A stretch of DNA of 64,000 bases, from the NCBI GenBank assembly GCA_029531795.1, contig JAPEIS010000005.1, positions 2,602,001 to 2,666,000 on the forward strand, read 5' to 3'. The position numbers were made by a program, and so were the translations under genes. Source of the DNA: Sclerotinia nivalis. Its lineage: Eukaryota > Ascomycota > Leotiomycetes > Helotiales > Sclerotiniaceae. The notes under the pieces are model-generated. The model was not told the DNA's origin. It worked only from the letters and a program-made list of their open reading frames with translations, and ran no database searches. How positions within the stretch are numbered: the first letter of the stretch is position 1; the number at the start of each line of letters is the position of its first letter. Of the stretch, positions 11,500-59,249 are shown one piece after another.

Positions 11500-12389
11500 A
11501 TTCGTACATTCAAATTCATATTATTCAACAACCACTAAATCAATTGATTGAAACTATTAAGAATCTAATAATCTAGGATCTATTACATTGATTTGACAAG
11601 TTCTTGAATTATGACCTGGCTTTCCACATTTACTATAGCATCTACTAGAAGATACTTCCCCATTAGAATTCCCCTTATTTTGATGCTCGTCGTATTGAAT
11701 CTGAATATCAACCTTTTGTTGAAATAATATATCTTCAACTTCCTATCCAGTAAATACTCCTCCATTACATAATTGAATCTTTTTAGCGCATCGACGTTTG
11801 CTTAATATTTCATTTGCCTTTCGAAGCATACGATTCTCTATATTTAAAAGTGTATTCTCATGAGCTAATCTTTTTGTACCCTTAGCTAGAGCTAATACAG
11901 TCTCAAATATAGATATAGGGAAGCTTGATTGATGACGAGCCATTCGAGATTTTACTAAAGTTGATTGTAAAAGAGCTTCAGTTGAGTTGTGAGGTGTTTG
12001 AGAGACCCAATAGTTTAAATCGATAGATGGGGGGGTAGGCGTACGAATTCGAATATCTAGTTTTGAGAATATAGCTTGAGGATCGAATAGTATTAGACCT
12101 GCTCCTCGAAAACCAGCTTTCATATTCTGAACTGTAATTGATTATTGATATACAGCTTTGAAAACTATAAAGAATTCAACCTTCGAGATATAGTTGATAT
12201 GAGCCTTGATAAATCCTTCAATTTGATAACTATATACCCATTTCAATATATCAAAACATCCAACATCAAGTAATTGAGTTAAATGATTTGAATACGATAG
12301 TAACTTTACCGTTATTATGTTATTTGACTTGCAATATAACTGAAAAGGTATCGATTCGTGATTTTCATGCCCATCTAGTACTAGCATTC

Positions 12390-12474
12390 GGAGGGCGAAG
12401 ACTCAACACCTGTACGTGGTGCCCTCTACGAACCTCCAGCTCTCTATTGAGAGTCTGCAAAGCTAAGATTGAGT
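12390..12474 (+). ncRNA. HDV-like self-cleaving ribozyme, copy A
   Basis: Starts at the first base of the retroposon. Pairings seen: P1 12390-12396 with 12421-12427 (GGAGGGC/GCCCTCT, 7 bp); P2 ACTCAA 12401-12406 with TTGAGT 12469-12474; P3 ACC 12408-12410 with GGT 12418-12420, enclosing a 7-nt L3. P1.1 is CGT in L3 (12415-12417) with ACG 12428-12430. P4 is 12437-12444 with 12449-12457 around a TATT loop and one bulged T. J4/2 contains CTAAG, with C12463 as the candidate catalytic cytosine. Helix order and lengths match the nested double pseudoknot of HDV-like ribozymes. Such ribozymes process the 5' ends of R2 and other non-LTR elements. Activity is inferred, not shown. Confidence 0.8.
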
Positions 12475-13474
12475 TATTTGATGGAATCGGATACATTGGA
12501 AGAGAGAGAGAGGGTTTCCCGATTACGATATTCACGATAAAGGGGTTATTACGATTTTATAGTATCAATATCTTCGAAAGAATAAACGAACATCAATCCA
12601 AAATACAGACGATAGCTATAGAAGCCCTGGTTAGATTCAACATCTATTATCGATTATTACCTCAATACGAAATATGATACACTTAATAAATTCCTTCTAT
12701 TCCAGAAGAATCTTTTCGATACGGAATTTGCTACTGTTTTATTTGCATTTTATACCTTTTTTCGACAATCGATTATCGAAAACACATTTATTTTAACACT
12801 ACGATTATCACGAAACAAAGAATACCATTATCTATCAATTAATACTATACTCTAGGCATCGATACGATATTACACCTTTTCCTCGATTTTACAAAAATAT
12901 TTTTTGTGCATGTATAGATAGGGTTAGAGCCACACCCCACTATCATTACATTCAAACGACCGATATTCCATTCAGCGGTTTCGATTATTTACATTCAAAC
13001 AAAGCTAGAAATCATCACACCTAGGAAAACATACAAAGAAACTAATAAATAAATTCGAACTAAAAAGAATAGTGCTTTCCAATTGCTTTTCACTAATATG
13101 AAGACCCTTTTGCTATACTGAAAGTAATCTTGACAAAGATGACTCTTGACCTTTATAGAAAGTAAATATCGAAATAGCAAATTGAATCGAAGAAAAAGAT
13201 TATATCAATAGAATACTTTAATTAACAAAAAGTAAAAAAAGAGCGAAAAAGGAAAGATCTTAAAGGATAAAGATATTAGACTTTATTCCTCAGTATTAGT
13301 TTTCACTTGCCCTCAATCAACATTTCAAAAGTTGAAAAGAAACCCAAACTATACAAACTGTATACTAGCTAGCATACAACTCCCTATAGCATCAACTAGG
13401 AGCTCATAGAGCCCTTAGCCGTCCTAGATAGTCTTAGACTCAGTGTGGACGTTAAATCAATCAATCAATCAATC
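12390..13474 (+). mobile_element. Ribozyme-headed non-LTR-like retroposon, copy A (1085 bp)
   Basis: Inserted into the transposase with a 13-bp target duplication AGTACTAGCATTC (12377-12389 and 13475-13487). It starts GGAGGGCGAAG and ends in four to five AATC units. It shares its whole length with the inverted copy at 14439-15530. There is no reverse transcriptase; the only longer frame (to about 12677) reads through the ribozyme and resembles no protein I know. Variable-length duplications and a short-repeat tail fit target-primed reverse transcription, so this is probably a non-autonomous passenger of a LINE not present in the window. The last 60 bp before the tail are the most widely shared segment (copies A-D). 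Confidence 0.85.
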
Positions 13475-14328
13475 AGTACTAGCATTCGATATTTGCCCTT
13501 TGTTCGATGAATTGTATGCTTATCGAAGTACTTTAACTATTCTAACCCTGTTTCATTATTCGTCCATCCATTAGAAGTAGGTTTAATAGCCCAATCTATA
13601 GGAAAACCGCTTTCCGTATACCAATTAGAAAGGTGATATTGTCCTTGCACTACTAAAAATGATAGTATAGTTTCCCCTTCCCCATTACTATATATAATCG
13701 CTGTAACCCACTCTCTATTGCCTGATTGTATTGCTTTGCTTTTACTATTTCGTTCAGCACTAGTTACAACTATTCCGAAGCATATTATACTCATCATAAA
13801 GCCGGTTTCGTCGAAGTTGTAGAAATCGCAATCCAGAATACTATATTTCGCTCGCATATTCGATACCAATCGAAACCACTCTTCAATAAACTTGGGATCT
13901 TTGTAGAGAGCTCTTTGAAAATCATAAATACAACTAAAACACATCTTTAATATTATATAATGCTTTATGAATCGATAAGCTTAGAGCTTTTCAACTTTCT
14001 TCGTATCTCTTGATTCGAGAATGTAATTCGCTATATCTTTTATACCCTTAAGTTTAGATGGAAACCTTCTGTTATCCATATCAAGTATATATTGAATAAT
14101 CAGTTCCTTTTCCAATTCTGTAATCTTATGGGTTTTGTGTCGATATTCTGCACGAGGGGTAAGACTGTCTATTCTGTGCTGAATCGTTGTACGCGGGATA
14201 TTATACAGTTTAGCAGCCTTCCGAATGCTTAGTTTTTTGTCTTTTTGAATAGTTTCGATAGCTAGAAAGATTCGTGCTTCTTTATTATTCGTTTCCATCA
14301 TAGATTGTTGATAAATCGTGTGTTGAAG

Positions 14329-14381: not shown

Positions 14382-14438
14382 TAGTGTATAAAGGACGGAT
14401 TACTATCGTTCCGATATCGCTCTGTATTGAACTTAAAA

Positions 14439-15530
14439 TTGATTGATTGATTGATTGATTTGATTTAACGTCCACACTGAGTCTAAGACTATCTAGGACG
14501 GCTAAGGGCTCTATGAGCTTCTAATTGATGCTATGGGGAGTTGTATACTAGCTAGCATACAATTTGTATAGTTTGGGTTTCTTTTCAACTTTTGAAATGT
14601 TGATTGAGGGCAAGTGAAAACTAATATTGGAGAACAAAGTCTGATATTTTTATTCTCTAAGACCTTTCCTTTCTTGTTCTTTTTTTACCTTTTGTTAATT
14701 AAAGTATCCTACTAATATAATCTTCTTCTTCGATCCAATCTGCTATTCCAATATTCACTTCCCATAAAGATCAAGAATCATCTTCGTCAAGATTACCTTC
14801 AATACAGCAAAAGGGTCTTCATACTAATGAAAAGCAACTGGGAGGTATTACTTTTCTTAGCTCGAATTCATTCATTAGTTTCTTTGTATACCTTTCTAGG
14901 TATGATAATCTTTAACTTTATTTGAATATAAATAATCGAAATTGTTGAATAGAATATCGATCGTTTGAATGTAATGATAATGAAGTATAATCCTAACTTT
15001 ACCTATACACATACAAAAAATATTTTCGTAAAATCGAGGAAAAGATGTAATATCGTATCGATGTCCAGAGTATAGCATTAATTGATAGATAATAGTATTC
15101 TCTGTTTCGTGATAATCGTAGTATTAAAATGAATATGTTTTCGATAATCGATTATCGAAAAAAGATATAAAATACGAATAAAACAATAGCAAATTCCGTA
15201 TCGAAAAGATCCTTTTGGAATAGAAGAGATTTACTAAGCATATTATACCTTGTATTGAAGTAATAATCGATAGCAGATGTTGAATCTAATCAGGGCTTCT
15301 GTAGTCATCGTCTGTATTTTGGATTGATGTTCGTTCATCCTTTTGAAGATATTGATGCTGTAAAATTGTAATAACCCTTCCATTGTGAATATCGTAATCG
15401 GGAAACCCTCTCTCTCTCTTCCAATATATCCGATTCCATCAAATGATTCAATCTTAGCTCTGCAGACTCTCAATAGAGAGCTGGAGGTTCGTAGAGGGCA
15501 CCACGTACAGGTGTTGAGTCTTCGCCCTCC
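14439..15530 (-). mobile_element. Ribozyme-headed retroposon, copy B (1092 bp, inverted)
   Basis: Same family as copy A, in the opposite orientation, with a perfect 14-bp target duplication TATTGAACTTAAAA (14425-14438 and 15531-15544). The 5' end is at 15530 and the ATTG-repeat tail at 14439. It lies just outside the pogo element's right end. Many of the differences from copy A are transitions. Together the two copies form a 1.1-kb inverted repeat with a spacer of about 960 bp. Confidence 0.85.
15446..15530 (-). ncRNA. HDV-like self-cleaving ribozyme, copy B
   Basis: Identical to copy A through P1, P3, L3, P1.1 and P4. It differs in J4/2 (one A-to-G) and in P2 (TTGAAT in place of TTGAGT), which breaks one P2 pair. 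CTAAG is kept. This copy may fold less well. Confidence 0.75.
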
Positions 15531-15544
15531 TATTGAACTTAAAA

Positions 15545-17648
15545 GAAATGGCTTTTCCATTGATTAAAGAATAATGAAAAGTTTTACTACTGTTTTACAA
15601 CTAATTGATTCTTTGTCATTTGTGACTCTTACAATATATATATATATATATTACCAGAACCCCCAAAGTTGAAGAGTTTCCATCCATTATATATAATGTC
15701 ACGGTTCGAAGGATTAGGTAAGCCGATCACCCCGATCGGCCCCCGAGCGACTAGCGCTCGAGGTTGATTGATTGATTGATTGAATTAACGTCTACACTGA
15801 GTCTAAGACTATCTAAGACGGCTAGAGGCTCTCTCGAGGTTGATCATATGCCTGTAATTAATATATATAATTCCCTCGGGGTTATCCACCTTTCGCTCTC
15901 TAGTTATAGATTTTAAGGATAATTGAACCCTGATTTCTCAGCTCTTTACGGCAATTGTGTCACATATAATAGTTCTTTGATAGATTCAGAAAAAGACAAT
16001 GAAAAGTTTATAAACTCGAATTATCCTCTATTATTGAAGTGCTAGTTGATTCCTTACTGTGATTCTTACAAAATATACTTCGAGTTCTATTATATCTAGA
16101 TCTAAACCCGGTACAGGCCTTCTACCACGTTTATTCACAATATAGAACCTTCTTCTAGGTTTAAAATACAATGAAAGAAGATAAAATTGGTACATTTCCA
16201 ACGTTGAGTTACTGTTATTGGCCAACCTTCTAATACGTCTCACAATACCCATTCCCACTAATACGAACAGTAGGCTAATATAACAATAAGTTCATCGATT
16301 ACAATACACCAAGATTCCATGTTGAAACTCATCAATTTCACTGGAAAACACTCAAACTGAGTTCAGAGAACTCAAATGTTGAAGAAATAATAATACCTCG
16401 TTCTCAGTCAAGAGATGGACCGAATAGCTAATCACTTGCGCCGATTTAATCTCGCAGCCCTTTCAGGAAAAAGGGCTTAATGCAGTTGCTCAAACATGGA
16501 CTAGGAATATCAATGATAAGAATGAATTGATAACTTTAAACTGTGCACCATAAAAGCCTATGTTGCTCACCACATGGACATATACTACCCCACCTCTTCT
16601 TTTGTGTAACAGGGGAACTGACAAACAGAAGGTCCATCTAACAAAAGCCTTTACAGGGATAGCTGCCAGTGCTGTGCAGGTCAACGCTGCATAGCTATGC
16701 CGGAAACTGGTGTTCCATATTGTAACACCCTATGATGAAGAGGAGGAACAGCTTTCTCTACATACATTGAAAGGGATATTCTAGGGGTTTCTTGAGAAGA
16801 TGAGGGGAATTATTATCTACCAAAAGGACGTAACCCTAAGGGAGCTAGAAATACTTCCCATGCATAAATTTCGTTAATTTTGATCTTCCTGGAAGGATAA
16901 GTGGGTCCAAAAGTGACTCTGAATTTCACTCATAAGTGAAATTCATATACCGATATCTGTGAGATGTGAATGCTGATGTAAAACCAGAGGTATGTATGAT
17001 GTATCATGATAAATGCTGTGATGGATTGATGTGGCATCCCGGACAATATATGGCCGCCGATAATGAGAATTTGAACCTTTAAGGAGAGCGGAGAATGACG
17101 TGAAATGTAGTCAATGTGACGTAAGTTCTTTTGCTTGAATAGGAAATCTTGGTTTGGACAGTGAATGGGGAATAGGGCAATGAAAAGTAATTATATGATG
17201 TTATAAGTAAAAATTGCGACCAAGTAAATTTGAATAATTGTCCAAATACACTCAAAGAGATGGGTGCCAAACATCTCACTAAAAAAGGTATTTGGCACCC
17301 TCTTTTCATCAAAGTTGACAACCCCAGAGCCTGAACATTCTTTCCCCGGCCTTTAGCGAAACTTATTCGATCCCTGACTTGCATATCTGAGGTAATTCTT
17401 CCAGGAATGCACTTATAAATAGCTATCCCCACTGTCCTAATCTTAACCTTTAATGAGAAGAGAATTTCCAATGGGTCATAATCTCTTCTCATCCAACCCC
17501 ATTGATAGAAGAATATAGTATTAATCCCTTCCGCAAGTTCGTAATAAACATTGAAAAGTTATGACATAAATTGCAGCGATATCTCAGATGAATCAATGCT
17601 TCCTGGCAAAGAGATAAGCCCTCGCAACCACTCTTACACCAAAAATAA
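15545..17648. other. Intergenic, transposon-derived in its first part
   Basis: Contains a (TA)n microsatellite near 15636-15650 and a TGTCACGG motif at about 15699 followed by GC-rich short inverted repeats, which looks like the start of another LTR whose end I cannot find. A 64-bp truncated retroposon lies inside it. From 16.0 to 17.6 kb I see no gene. Confidence 0.5.
15769..15832 (-). mobile_element. 5'-truncated retroposon, copy C (64 bp)
   Basis: Only the 3' end of the family remains: the segment with GTCTTAGACTCAGTGTAGACG and the repeat tail. It is flanked by a perfect 12-bp duplication CTCGAGGTTGAT (15757-15768 and 15833-15844). Severe 5' truncation inside an intact target duplication is characteristic of aborted target-primed reverse transcription. 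Confidence 0.8.
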
Positions 17649-56575: not shown

Positions 56576-56616
56576 TGGAGGCTAGTAGCCGAGGGTTTTC
56601 TCAACCACATTGGATT

Positions 56617-56828
56617 GATTGATTGATTGATTGAATTAACGTCTACACCGAGTCTAAGACTATCTAAGACGGCTAGAGGCTCTTGCGAACTCCTAGCAGG
56701 TAATAATAATGAAAGTAAGCTGGCTAATTGATCTGGCTCAGTGCATGGTTTGAATGATTGAGATGGGCTCAATCTTTTGAGTTAAATAGGGGAAGTGAAA
56801 ACTAATCCTGGGGGATGGATCCCGCCCT
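56617..56828 (-). mobile_element. Retroposon, copy D (212 bp, variant subfamily)
   Basis: Ends in the same ATTG-repeat tail and shares the conserved 3' segment (GTCTTAGACTC, GTAGACGTTAA) with copies A-C, inside a perfect 16-bp target duplication TCAACCACATTGGATT (56601-56616 and 56829-56844). Its upstream 140 bp share only patches with copy A (for example ATTAGTTTTCACTT) and it lacks the ribozyme head, starting GGGCGGGATCC. It is either a 5'-truncated variant or a short SINE-like subfamily. Confidence 0.75.
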
Positions 56829-56844
56829 TCAACCACATTGGATT

Positions 56845-58868: not shown

Positions 58869-58960
58869 GGAGGACAAGACTCAACACCTGTACGCGGTGT
58901 TCTCTACGAATCTCCAGCTCTTTTATTTAATTATTAGAGTCTGTAAAGCTAAGTTTGAAT
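58869..58960 (+). ncRNA. HDV-like ribozyme, diverged copy E
   Basis: P1 GGAGGAC pairs with GTTCTCT (58899-58905). Relative to copy A, one G-C pair has become A-T and another G-T, so all seven pairs are kept. P3 ACC/GGT and the two G-C pairs of P1.1 are conserved. P4 keeps CAG/CTG and CTCT/AGAG with a longer AT-rich loop. J4/2 keeps CTAAG. P2 has one mismatch (ACTCAA/TTGAAT). Confidence 0.72.
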
Positions 58961-59249
58961 CATTTAATAAAGTTGTAATGATTGAAAGAGAAAGAAATAT
59001 CCGATCGCGATGTTTTTTTGTCTTCGAGTTAGCTAATAGCAAAGGCCAGATCTCGGTTTTTTTGATAATCGTATTATCGGATTGTGCTTTTTACAATATT
59101 ATTTTTATTACAAAATAAAGAACAATACTATCATTTATGATAATATACTACAAAATCATTTTCAAGATTTCTCTAAGGTATTGAATACGATTTATCAAAT
59201 TCGGTTTTAAAGTTTAAGCTTTACCTTCTTCAATTCGAATCAAAACAAC
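58869..59249 (+). mobile_element. Ribozyme-headed retroposon, diverged copy E (partial)
   Basis: Begins GGAGGACAAGACTC, matching the 5' head of copies A and B, and stays alignable with many transitions (for example ACAAAATAAAGAACAATAC near 59115 against copy A near 12815). It is interrupted at 59250 by the Ty3/gypsy LTR, so it is older than that insertion. No 3' tail is visible. Confidence 0.7.

What the first reader, a model, noticed from the sequence alone, without database searches (positions are those of the whole stretch)
12390..12474. HDV-like self-cleaving ribozyme at the exact 5' end of a fungal retroposon
The first 85 nt of the retroposon fold as the nested double pseudoknot of HDV-like ribozymes: P1 7 bp, P2 6 bp, P3 3 bp with a 7-nt L3, a P1.1 mini-helix between L3 and J1/4, a P4 hairpin, and J4/2 with CTAAG. 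The predicted cleavage site, 5' of the first P1 base, coincides with the element border fixed independently by target duplications. HDV-like ribozymes are established at the 5' ends of R2, L1Tc and other non-LTR elements. Finding one heading a short, apparently non-autonomous fungal element is the most novel signal here. Cleavage would define the 5' end of the RNA and of each new copy.
Basis: partly seen in the sequence, partly recalled or inferred. Interest (0 to 1): 0.93.

Follow-up and report, generated by a model that had tools for sequence, protein, structure and literature searches.

The report
Ribozyme-headed hybrid retroposon in a fungus
A short repeat that has copied itself around the genome of a Sclerotinia fungus starts exactly with a predicted self-cutting RNA of the hepatitis-delta kind and has the tail of a different jumping gene, which suggests what some fungal self-cutting RNAs are for.

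Summary
Confirmed and extended. Window 12390-12474 has the complete HDV-like double pseudoknot. A descriptor finds it once in the 64-kb window, against 11 hits in 284 Mb of simulated sequence. Its first base is the element border: 31 of 33 insertions tested have exact 11-16-nt target duplications; 25 abut the ribozyme's first G, 6 leave one extra nucleotide. The strongest evidence is covariation. A LINE with a 1270-aa frame and two further ribozyme-headed families in the same genome start with the same core but with different, compensated P1, P2 and P4 helices. The genome holds 168 core sites at up to 3 mismatches; the reversed control holds 0. The element looks hybrid: its 3' end, a stem-loop with one compensated pair plus an (AATC)n tail, matches a different LINE with no HDV-like segment in the copies read. 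Host: almost certainly Sclerotinia nivalis. Precedents temper novelty: fungal HDV variants with the same extra C between P2 and P3 (PMC5640933), trypanosome NARTc/SIDER (PMC4035085), Drosophila R2/R1 hybrid SIDEs (PMC3414825). Apparently new: such ribozymes as exact 5' ends of fungal LINEs and of an abundant hybrid retroposon. Cleavage was not tested.

The parts
12377..12389 (+). left target-site duplication AGTACTAGCATTC
12390..12474 (+). HDV-like ribozyme; predicted cleavage 5' of G12390
12390..12396 (+). P1 5' strand GGAGGGC, pairs 12421-12427
12401..12406 (+). P2 5' strand ACTCAA, pairs 12469-12474; followed by unpaired C12407
12408..12420 (+). P3 (ACC/GGT) with 7-nt L3 TGTACGT; P1.1 is 12412-12413 with 12428-12429
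12421..12427 (+). P1 3' strand GCCCTCT
12434..12460 (+). P4 hairpin with one C-C mismatch and one bulge; outermost pair lost in this copy by G71A (12460)
12463..12463 (+). candidate catalytic C in J4/2 (GCTAAG)
   Evidence: invariant in the 11 rows; T in copy L019
12475..13419 (+). body of the element, no long frame
13420..13451 (+). 3' stem-loop shared with LINE-A; one compensated pair between element and LINE-A
13452..13474 (+). TTA + (AATC)n tail
13475..13487 (+). right target-site duplication
14439..15530 (-). second full-length copy, opposite strand, ribozyme starting at 15530 (one P2 pair broken); TSDs 15531-15544 and 14425-14438
15764..15832 (-). 3' end of a 5'-truncated LINE-A copy; TSD of up to 12 nt (ATCAACCTCGAG, part may be tail), read by eye
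56613..56832 (-). 3' end of a second 5'-truncated LINE-A copy; TSD of up to 16 nt (AATCCAATGTGGTTGA, part may be tail), read by eye
58869..59249 (+). 5' part of a class-3 ribozyme-headed element (GGAGGAC start), mutated; homology stops at 59249

Best explanation
It is a high-copy non-autonomous retroposon whose two ends are RNA signals from different LINE lineages. At the 5' end, an HDV-like ribozyme cuts itself out of a longer read-through transcript (inferred), leaving a 5'-OH RNA that begins exactly at G12390. At the 3' end, a stem-loop plus (AATC)n tail like that of LINE-A recruits the LINE-A endonuclease/reverse transcriptase in trans (inferred from shared sequence, one compensated pair and similar duplications). 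Target-primed reverse transcription runs to the ribozyme-made end, so full-length copies have a precise 5' junction, sometimes with one extra nucleotide. Because each copy carries its own 5' processing, it may need no promoter of its own. Shown here: structure, covariation, border, shared ends, copy number. Inferred: cleavage, trans-mobilisation, promoter independence.
For: Descriptor rarity; over all 96 loci held at the end (286 kb) it hits 42, all of them loci fetched for a ribozyme-headed element or LINE-B: 24 of 30 class-1 loci, 12 of 15 LINE-B, 5 of 5 class 3, and class 4. Covariation between class 1, LINE-B, class 3 and class 4: P1 pairs 3, 4, 5 and 6, P2 pair 2 and P4 pairs are compensated while, between families, P3, L3 (but its last base), P1.1 and the J4/2 C are the same. 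On alignment A1, 7 pairs changed on both sides versus 1.9 in shuffles (0 of 500) and 0-1 in slid controls. 168 genomic sites versus 0 for the reversed pattern. Flanks differ just upstream of the ribozyme in the 20 further sites read. TSDs abut the ribozyme (LINE-B: L063 13 nt, L069 15 nt). 35 of the 40 best 3' ends have a full-length 5' partner in the lists at hand. The last 68-84 nt are 87-93% identical to LINE-A, with a covarying stem. Two truncated LINE-A copies in the window have similar TSDs.
Against: No cleavage assay. No Rfam HDV match. MFE prefers a competing GGAGG/CCUCC pairing in class 1. In one search the number of further pair types is not above shuffles (8 versus 7.8; 324 of 500), P4 pair 47-69 is a C-C mismatch in class 1, and P3 and P1.1 never vary there, so they are not tested by covariation. 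A1 has five rows, four from class 1. Six of seven LINE-B 3' regions fetched at guessed positions showed no TSD. Ten of 30 copies carry changes in the ribozyme, and LINE-B copy L074 begins ACGATGC instead of GGGATGC. No expression data.
Confidence: 0.85

Rival explanations
1. The 5' segment is an internal promoter or protein-binding structure of the retroposon that only resembles an HDV ribozyme and does not cut.
For: No activity shown; single-sequence fold favours another hairpin; no Rfam match.
Against: Compensated changes in P1, P2 and P4 with an unchanged core match what cleavage needs; the predicted cut site is the insertion border in three families. A promoter need not be border-exact or covary as a pseudoknot.
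Confidence: 0.08
2. The element is an internally deleted derivative of a single LINE that has both this ribozyme and the LINE-A 3' end (like R2 SIDE or NARTc), not a hybrid of two LINEs.
For: Outside P1, class 1, 3 and 4 ribozymes resemble each other more than LINE-B's; such a parent could be extinct or unsampled.
Against: Three LINE-A copies (L061, L062, L087) share a 5' start that is not an HDV-like segment and give no descriptor hit; two further LINE-A 5' regions (L085, L086) were uninformative. The ribozyme-bearing LINE read in full (L063, LINE-B) has no match to the element's 3' end. Only a few LINEs were read.
Confidence: 0.35
3. The ribozyme is a dead relic: copies spread by promoter-driven transcription and the ribozyme only hitch-hikes.
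For: 10 of 30 copies are changed in it; some have lost a P2 pair or the catalytic C.
Against: 20 of 30 copies have an unchanged ribozyme; pairs are compensated between families; the two ends are the least diverged blocks, though base composition may contribute.
Confidence: 0.1

Closest known systems
R2/R1 hybrid SIDEs of Drosophila (PMC3414825; abstract and section 7 read)
   Same: HDV-like ribozyme of one LINE joined to the 3' end of another; 14-bp target duplications of the 3' donor; compensatory P1 changes in D. immigrans; ribozymes shown to cleave.
   Different: Those sit in one rDNA site; copy estimates there run from fewer than 5 to about as many as R2. Here the element is dispersed and fungal, with at least 76 class-1 core sites among the first 100 listed of 168. 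Whether LINE-A or LINE-B belong to the R1 or R2 clades was not tested.
Fungal HDV ribozyme variants (Li and Breaker 2017, PMC5640933; abstract, section 7 and passages read)
   Same: 230 fungal HDV-type ribozymes in 26 species with an extra nucleotide, mostly C, between P2 and P3, as C12407; two examples shown to cleave. The paper also speaks of 11 earlier fungal examples.
   Different: That consensus has a C-G pair at the cleavage site and a loop E in P4; here G.U and no loop E recognised by eye. The main text does not contain 'transpos', 'retrotransposon' or 'Sclerotinia' and speaks of widely variable gene associations.
L1Tc/NARTc/SIDER Pr77 ribozymes of trypanosomatids (PMC4035085; abstract and passages read)
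   Same: HDV-like ribozyme at the 5' end of autonomous and short non-autonomous retroposons.
R2 5' ribozyme (PMC3774820; abstract start and passages read)
   Same: Cleavage defines the element's 5' end; P1.1, P3 and L3 conserved with compensatory changes in P1 in fruit flies.
   Different: Drosophila R2: less than 40% canonical 5' junctions reported; here 25 of 31 junctions abut the TSD and 6 have one extra nt.

Membership tests
HDV-like self-cleaving ribozymes | nested double pseudoknot P1-P4 with P1.1 | tested here: met
HDV-like self-cleaving ribozymes | active-site C in J4/2 and L3 with U at position 1, G at position 6 (positions recalled) | tested here: met
   invariant in the 11 rows; C lost in L019, L3 G lost in L019 and L029
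HDV-like self-cleaving ribozymes | self-cleavage 5' of G1 giving 5'-OH and 2',3'-cyclic phosphate | not testable with these tools
   needs in vitro transcription
HDV-like self-cleaving ribozymes | match to the Rfam HDV model | tested here: not met
   no hit; one search's controls also rang in no genome, so the model's reach is untested. I do not take this as a defining feature, since the class is defined by structure and cleavage
Fungal HDV variant (Li and Breaker) | extra nucleotide, mostly C, between P2 and P3 | tested here: met
   6 of 6 sequences tabulated
Fungal HDV variant (Li and Breaker) | C-G pair at the cleavage site (typical, not universal) | tested here: not met
   G.U in 6 of 6 sequences
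Fungal HDV variant (Li and Breaker) | loop E in P4 | tested here: inconclusive
   none seen by eye; no motif model run
Hybrid SIDE (ribozyme of one LINE, 3' end of another) | 5' ribozyme homologous to LINE-B, 3' end homologous to LINE-A | tested here: met
Hybrid SIDE (ribozyme of one LINE, 3' end of another) | mobilised by the 3' donor's machinery | tested here: inconclusive
   similar TSDs in two truncated LINE-A copies and the same tail repeat; no functional test
Non-autonomous retroposon | no coding capacity, TSD, repeat tail, many copies | tested here: met

The most novel reading that the evidence does not exclude
Fungal HDV-type ribozymes as a class (reported in 26 species with widely variable gene associations) are largely the 5' ends of LINEs and of hybrid retroposons built from one LINE's ribozyme and another LINE's 3' stem-loop; the ribozyme lets a promoterless non-coding element spread as full-length copies with near-exact 5' junctions.
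Probability: 0.5. Interest if true: 0.75.

Novelty: new member of a known kind. Interest (0 to 1): 0.62.

Why it matters
It suggests a concrete biological role for fungal HDV-type ribozymes, which the paper that described the variant class did not tie to mobile elements. It also shows, in a fungus and at high copy, a two-signal recipe for a parasite of parasites: a LINE-type self-cutting 5' end plus another LINE's 3' recognition hairpin. Four covarying families in one genome make both cleavage and trans-mobilisation directly testable, and the near-exact 5' junctions offer a natural data set on how ribozyme-made RNA ends shape second-strand joining.

Tried and rejected
Rfam scans of the region, of the genome (RF00094) and of four related loci: no HDV match. 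The first descriptor missed the window copy because its P4 rule was too strict; the rule was loosened once. It was written knowing this motif, so its specificity is optimistic. A first core pattern had one letter too many and found nothing; the corrected one is. A covariance model could not be used on this genome. Core pattern in viral and prokaryote contigs: 0; LINE-B protein in viral contigs: 8 pattern matches, none confirmed. No other fungal genome could be searched, so relatives in S. sclerotiorum or Blumeria are untested at DNA level, although LINE-B protein relatives exist there. Considered and rejected: chance fold; satellite or circular-RNA element (tails and TSDs argue for target-primed insertion). 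Literature: searches listed titles and abstract starts; none I saw ties HDV ribozymes to fungal LINEs. Searches showed 15 of 187 and 15 of 379 papers, and most listed papers (PMC3636483 and PMC8865084 among them) were not opened. Webb 2009 and Ruminski 2011 are not held.

Full report
The observation. The element runs from 12390 to 13474 and is flanked by the 13-nt duplication AGTACTAGCATTC. A descriptor (P1 7 bp starting with G, P3 3 bp, 7-nt L3 with U1 and G6, P1.1, P2 of 5 bp, a C-N-R-A in J4/2, a P4 of at least 5 bp) finds this site and no other in the window, and 11 hits in 284.2 Mb of sequence simulated from the window's dinucleotides. By energy alone the segment is ordinary (z -1.35), and the pseudoknot-free minimum contains a competing GGAGG/CCUCC helix.

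Copies. A DNA search scored the best 40 of 464 first-look candidates and gave 45 matches, 41 of them near full-length. Thirty loci were cut out. 30 of 30 begin at the same G; 20 have no change in the first 85 nt and 10 have only G>A or C>T changes. Four of the 10 lose one P2 pair, L019 and L029 lose the L3 G, and L019 the catalytic C. Copies differ from the majority by 9 to 121 positions; in the more diverged ones nearly all differences are C>T and G>A. In that call (window copy left out) the blocks holding the ribozyme (columns 1-50 and 51-100: 0.55% and 0.97%) and the block 1001-1050 with most of the 3' stem-loop (0.14%) are the least diverged of 22; this is suggestive only, since mutable bases are unevenly spread.

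Border. Of 33 insertions tested (30 class-1 copies including the window's plus copy, the window's minus copy, two class-3 copies) 31 have an exact direct repeat of 11-16 nt; 25 abut the first G and 6 leave one nucleotide between. The two failures are L002, whose duplication has one mismatch as seen, and L030. Of the 40 best 3' ends listed, 35 have a full-length 5' partner in the capped lists at hand.

Covariation. A pattern for the core found 168 places in the genome at up to 3 mismatches and none for the reversed control. Of the 100 places listed, by my reading of the core letters, 76 are class 1, 17 LINE-B, 6 class 3 and 1 class 4. LINE-B looks autonomous: the copy in L063 has a 1270-aa frame with endonuclease, reverse transcriptase and RNase H matches (RNase H 25.3 bits, just under its cut-off of 25.8). 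Of 15 LINE-B 5' ends read (L063 and 14), 14 begin GGGATGC; L074 begins ACGATGC. LINE-B TSDs meeting the ribozyme's first G are found in L063 (13 nt) and L069 (15 nt); in the other six of seven 3' regions fetched at guessed positions no TSD was found. Class 3 is a second short family of about 870 nt, with TSDs in both copies tested. Class 4 is a single place (L077). P1 reads GGAGGGC/GCCCUCU (class 1), GGAGGAC/GUCCUCU (class 3) and GGGAUGC/GCAUCCU (LINE-B, class 4): pairs 3, 4, 5 and 6 change on both sides, and the first pair stays G.U. P2 pair 2 is C-G or U-A, also within class 1 (L011, second copy). P4 changes throughout. Between families P3, L3 (UGUACG then U or C), P1.1 and the J4/2 C are the same; within LINE-B, L078 has C20U in P3, which leaves a U.G pair. 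On alignment A1, 7 pairs have changes on both sides versus 1.9 in shuffles (0 of 500 reach it) and 0-1 in slid controls; the count of further pair types is not above shuffles (324 of 500), and P4 pair 47-69 is a mismatch in class 1. A1 has only five rows, four from class 1. In alignment A2 class 3 is out of register by one in P1, so the comparison of all families was made by script. Over all 96 loci held at the end the descriptor hits 24 of 30 class-1 loci, 12 of 15 LINE-B, 5 of 5 class 3, the class-4 locus, and no other.

Two different parents. The last 68-84 nt of the element are 87-93% identical to the 3' end of LINE-A (copies L061 and L062; 1319-aa frame in L062), and a block near 888-942 is 82-88% identical. 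The shared 3' hairpin has a C-G pair in the element and class 3 where LINE-A has U-A. Three LINE-A copies share a 5' start that is not HDV-like (L061, L062, L087) and give no descriptor hit; two more fetched regions (L085, L086) did not reach a recognisable 5' start. L087 has a TSD that places its border about 13 nt further upstream. LINE-B in L063 has no match to the element's 3' end. Hence the best reading is a hybrid: a LINE-B-type ribozyme with a LINE-A 3' end. Because class 1, 3 and 4 ribozymes are, outside P1, closer to each other than to LINE-B's, an unsampled LINE with both ends remains possible. Two LINE-A pieces in the window (15764-15832 and 56613-56832, minus) are strongly 5'-truncated and carry TSDs of up to 12 and 16 nt, read by eye, the length seen for the element.

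Host. A LINE-B fragment is 99% identical to a Sclerotinia nivalis protein on a contig of 2,968,593 bases, the length of contig C4 of this genome.

Mechanism. Shown: structure, compensation, border, shared ends, copy number. Inferred: the ribozyme trims read-through transcripts to start at G1; LINE-A's enzyme primes on the 3' hairpin and AATC tail; reverse transcription to the trimmed end gives precise full-length insertions, with an occasional extra nucleotide at the junction.

Comparison. The architecture matches the R2/R1 hybrid SIDEs of Drosophila (PMC3414825, abstract and section 7), where such ribozymes were shown to cut. Short HDV-headed retroposons are known in trypanosomatids (PMC4035085, abstract and passages). 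Li and Breaker (PMC5640933, abstract, section 7 and passages) described 230 fungal HDV variants in 26 species with an extra nucleotide, mostly C, between P2 and P3; 6 of 6 sequences tabulated here have that C. Their C-G at the cut site is absent here and loop E was not recognised. That paper's main text does not contain 'transpos'. I saw no paper that ties HDV ribozymes to fungal LINEs in the listings, which are partly capped, and key papers outside the library could not be read. So this is a new member of a known kind, in a new host group as far as I could see, at high copy, with unusually strong internal comparative evidence.

Noticed in passing
window 12390-13474; copies L001-L030: Mutations in the diverged copies are almost all C>T and G>A but strand-asymmetric (window copy 86 G>A against 19 C>T) with little CpA preference (C>T rate 0.066 at CA, 0.069 at CT; G>A 0.123 at TG, 0.104 at GG), so simple Neurospora-type RIP fits poorly.
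   Followed up: partly
window 12390-13474 and 14439-15530: The two full copies lie in opposite orientation about 1 kb apart, so a transcript through both could form a long hairpin.
   Followed up: no
G000:C4:623460-625636 and G000:C5:1120738-1122921: Two copies head to tail with 12 bp between them, and a match pattern that looks like one copy inserted into another.
   Followed up: no
L064 (G000:C9:2633800-2643600): A third LINE (1265-aa frame, AATTC repeats near its 3' end) recurs with identical match scores on C9, C16, C19-C22 and C26 and lies beside masked stretches here; no HDV descriptor hit.
   Followed up: no
L087 (G000:C9:2559211): This LINE-A copy has about 13 nt between its TSD and the 5' sequence shared with other copies, perhaps a longer true 5' end or filler at the junction.
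   Followed up: partly
L077/L088 (G000:C1:3864300-3865900): Single class-4 ribozyme with LINE-B-like P1 but class-3-like remainder; the main match to class 3 ends after about 325 nt, perhaps a recombinant or another family.
   Followed up: partly
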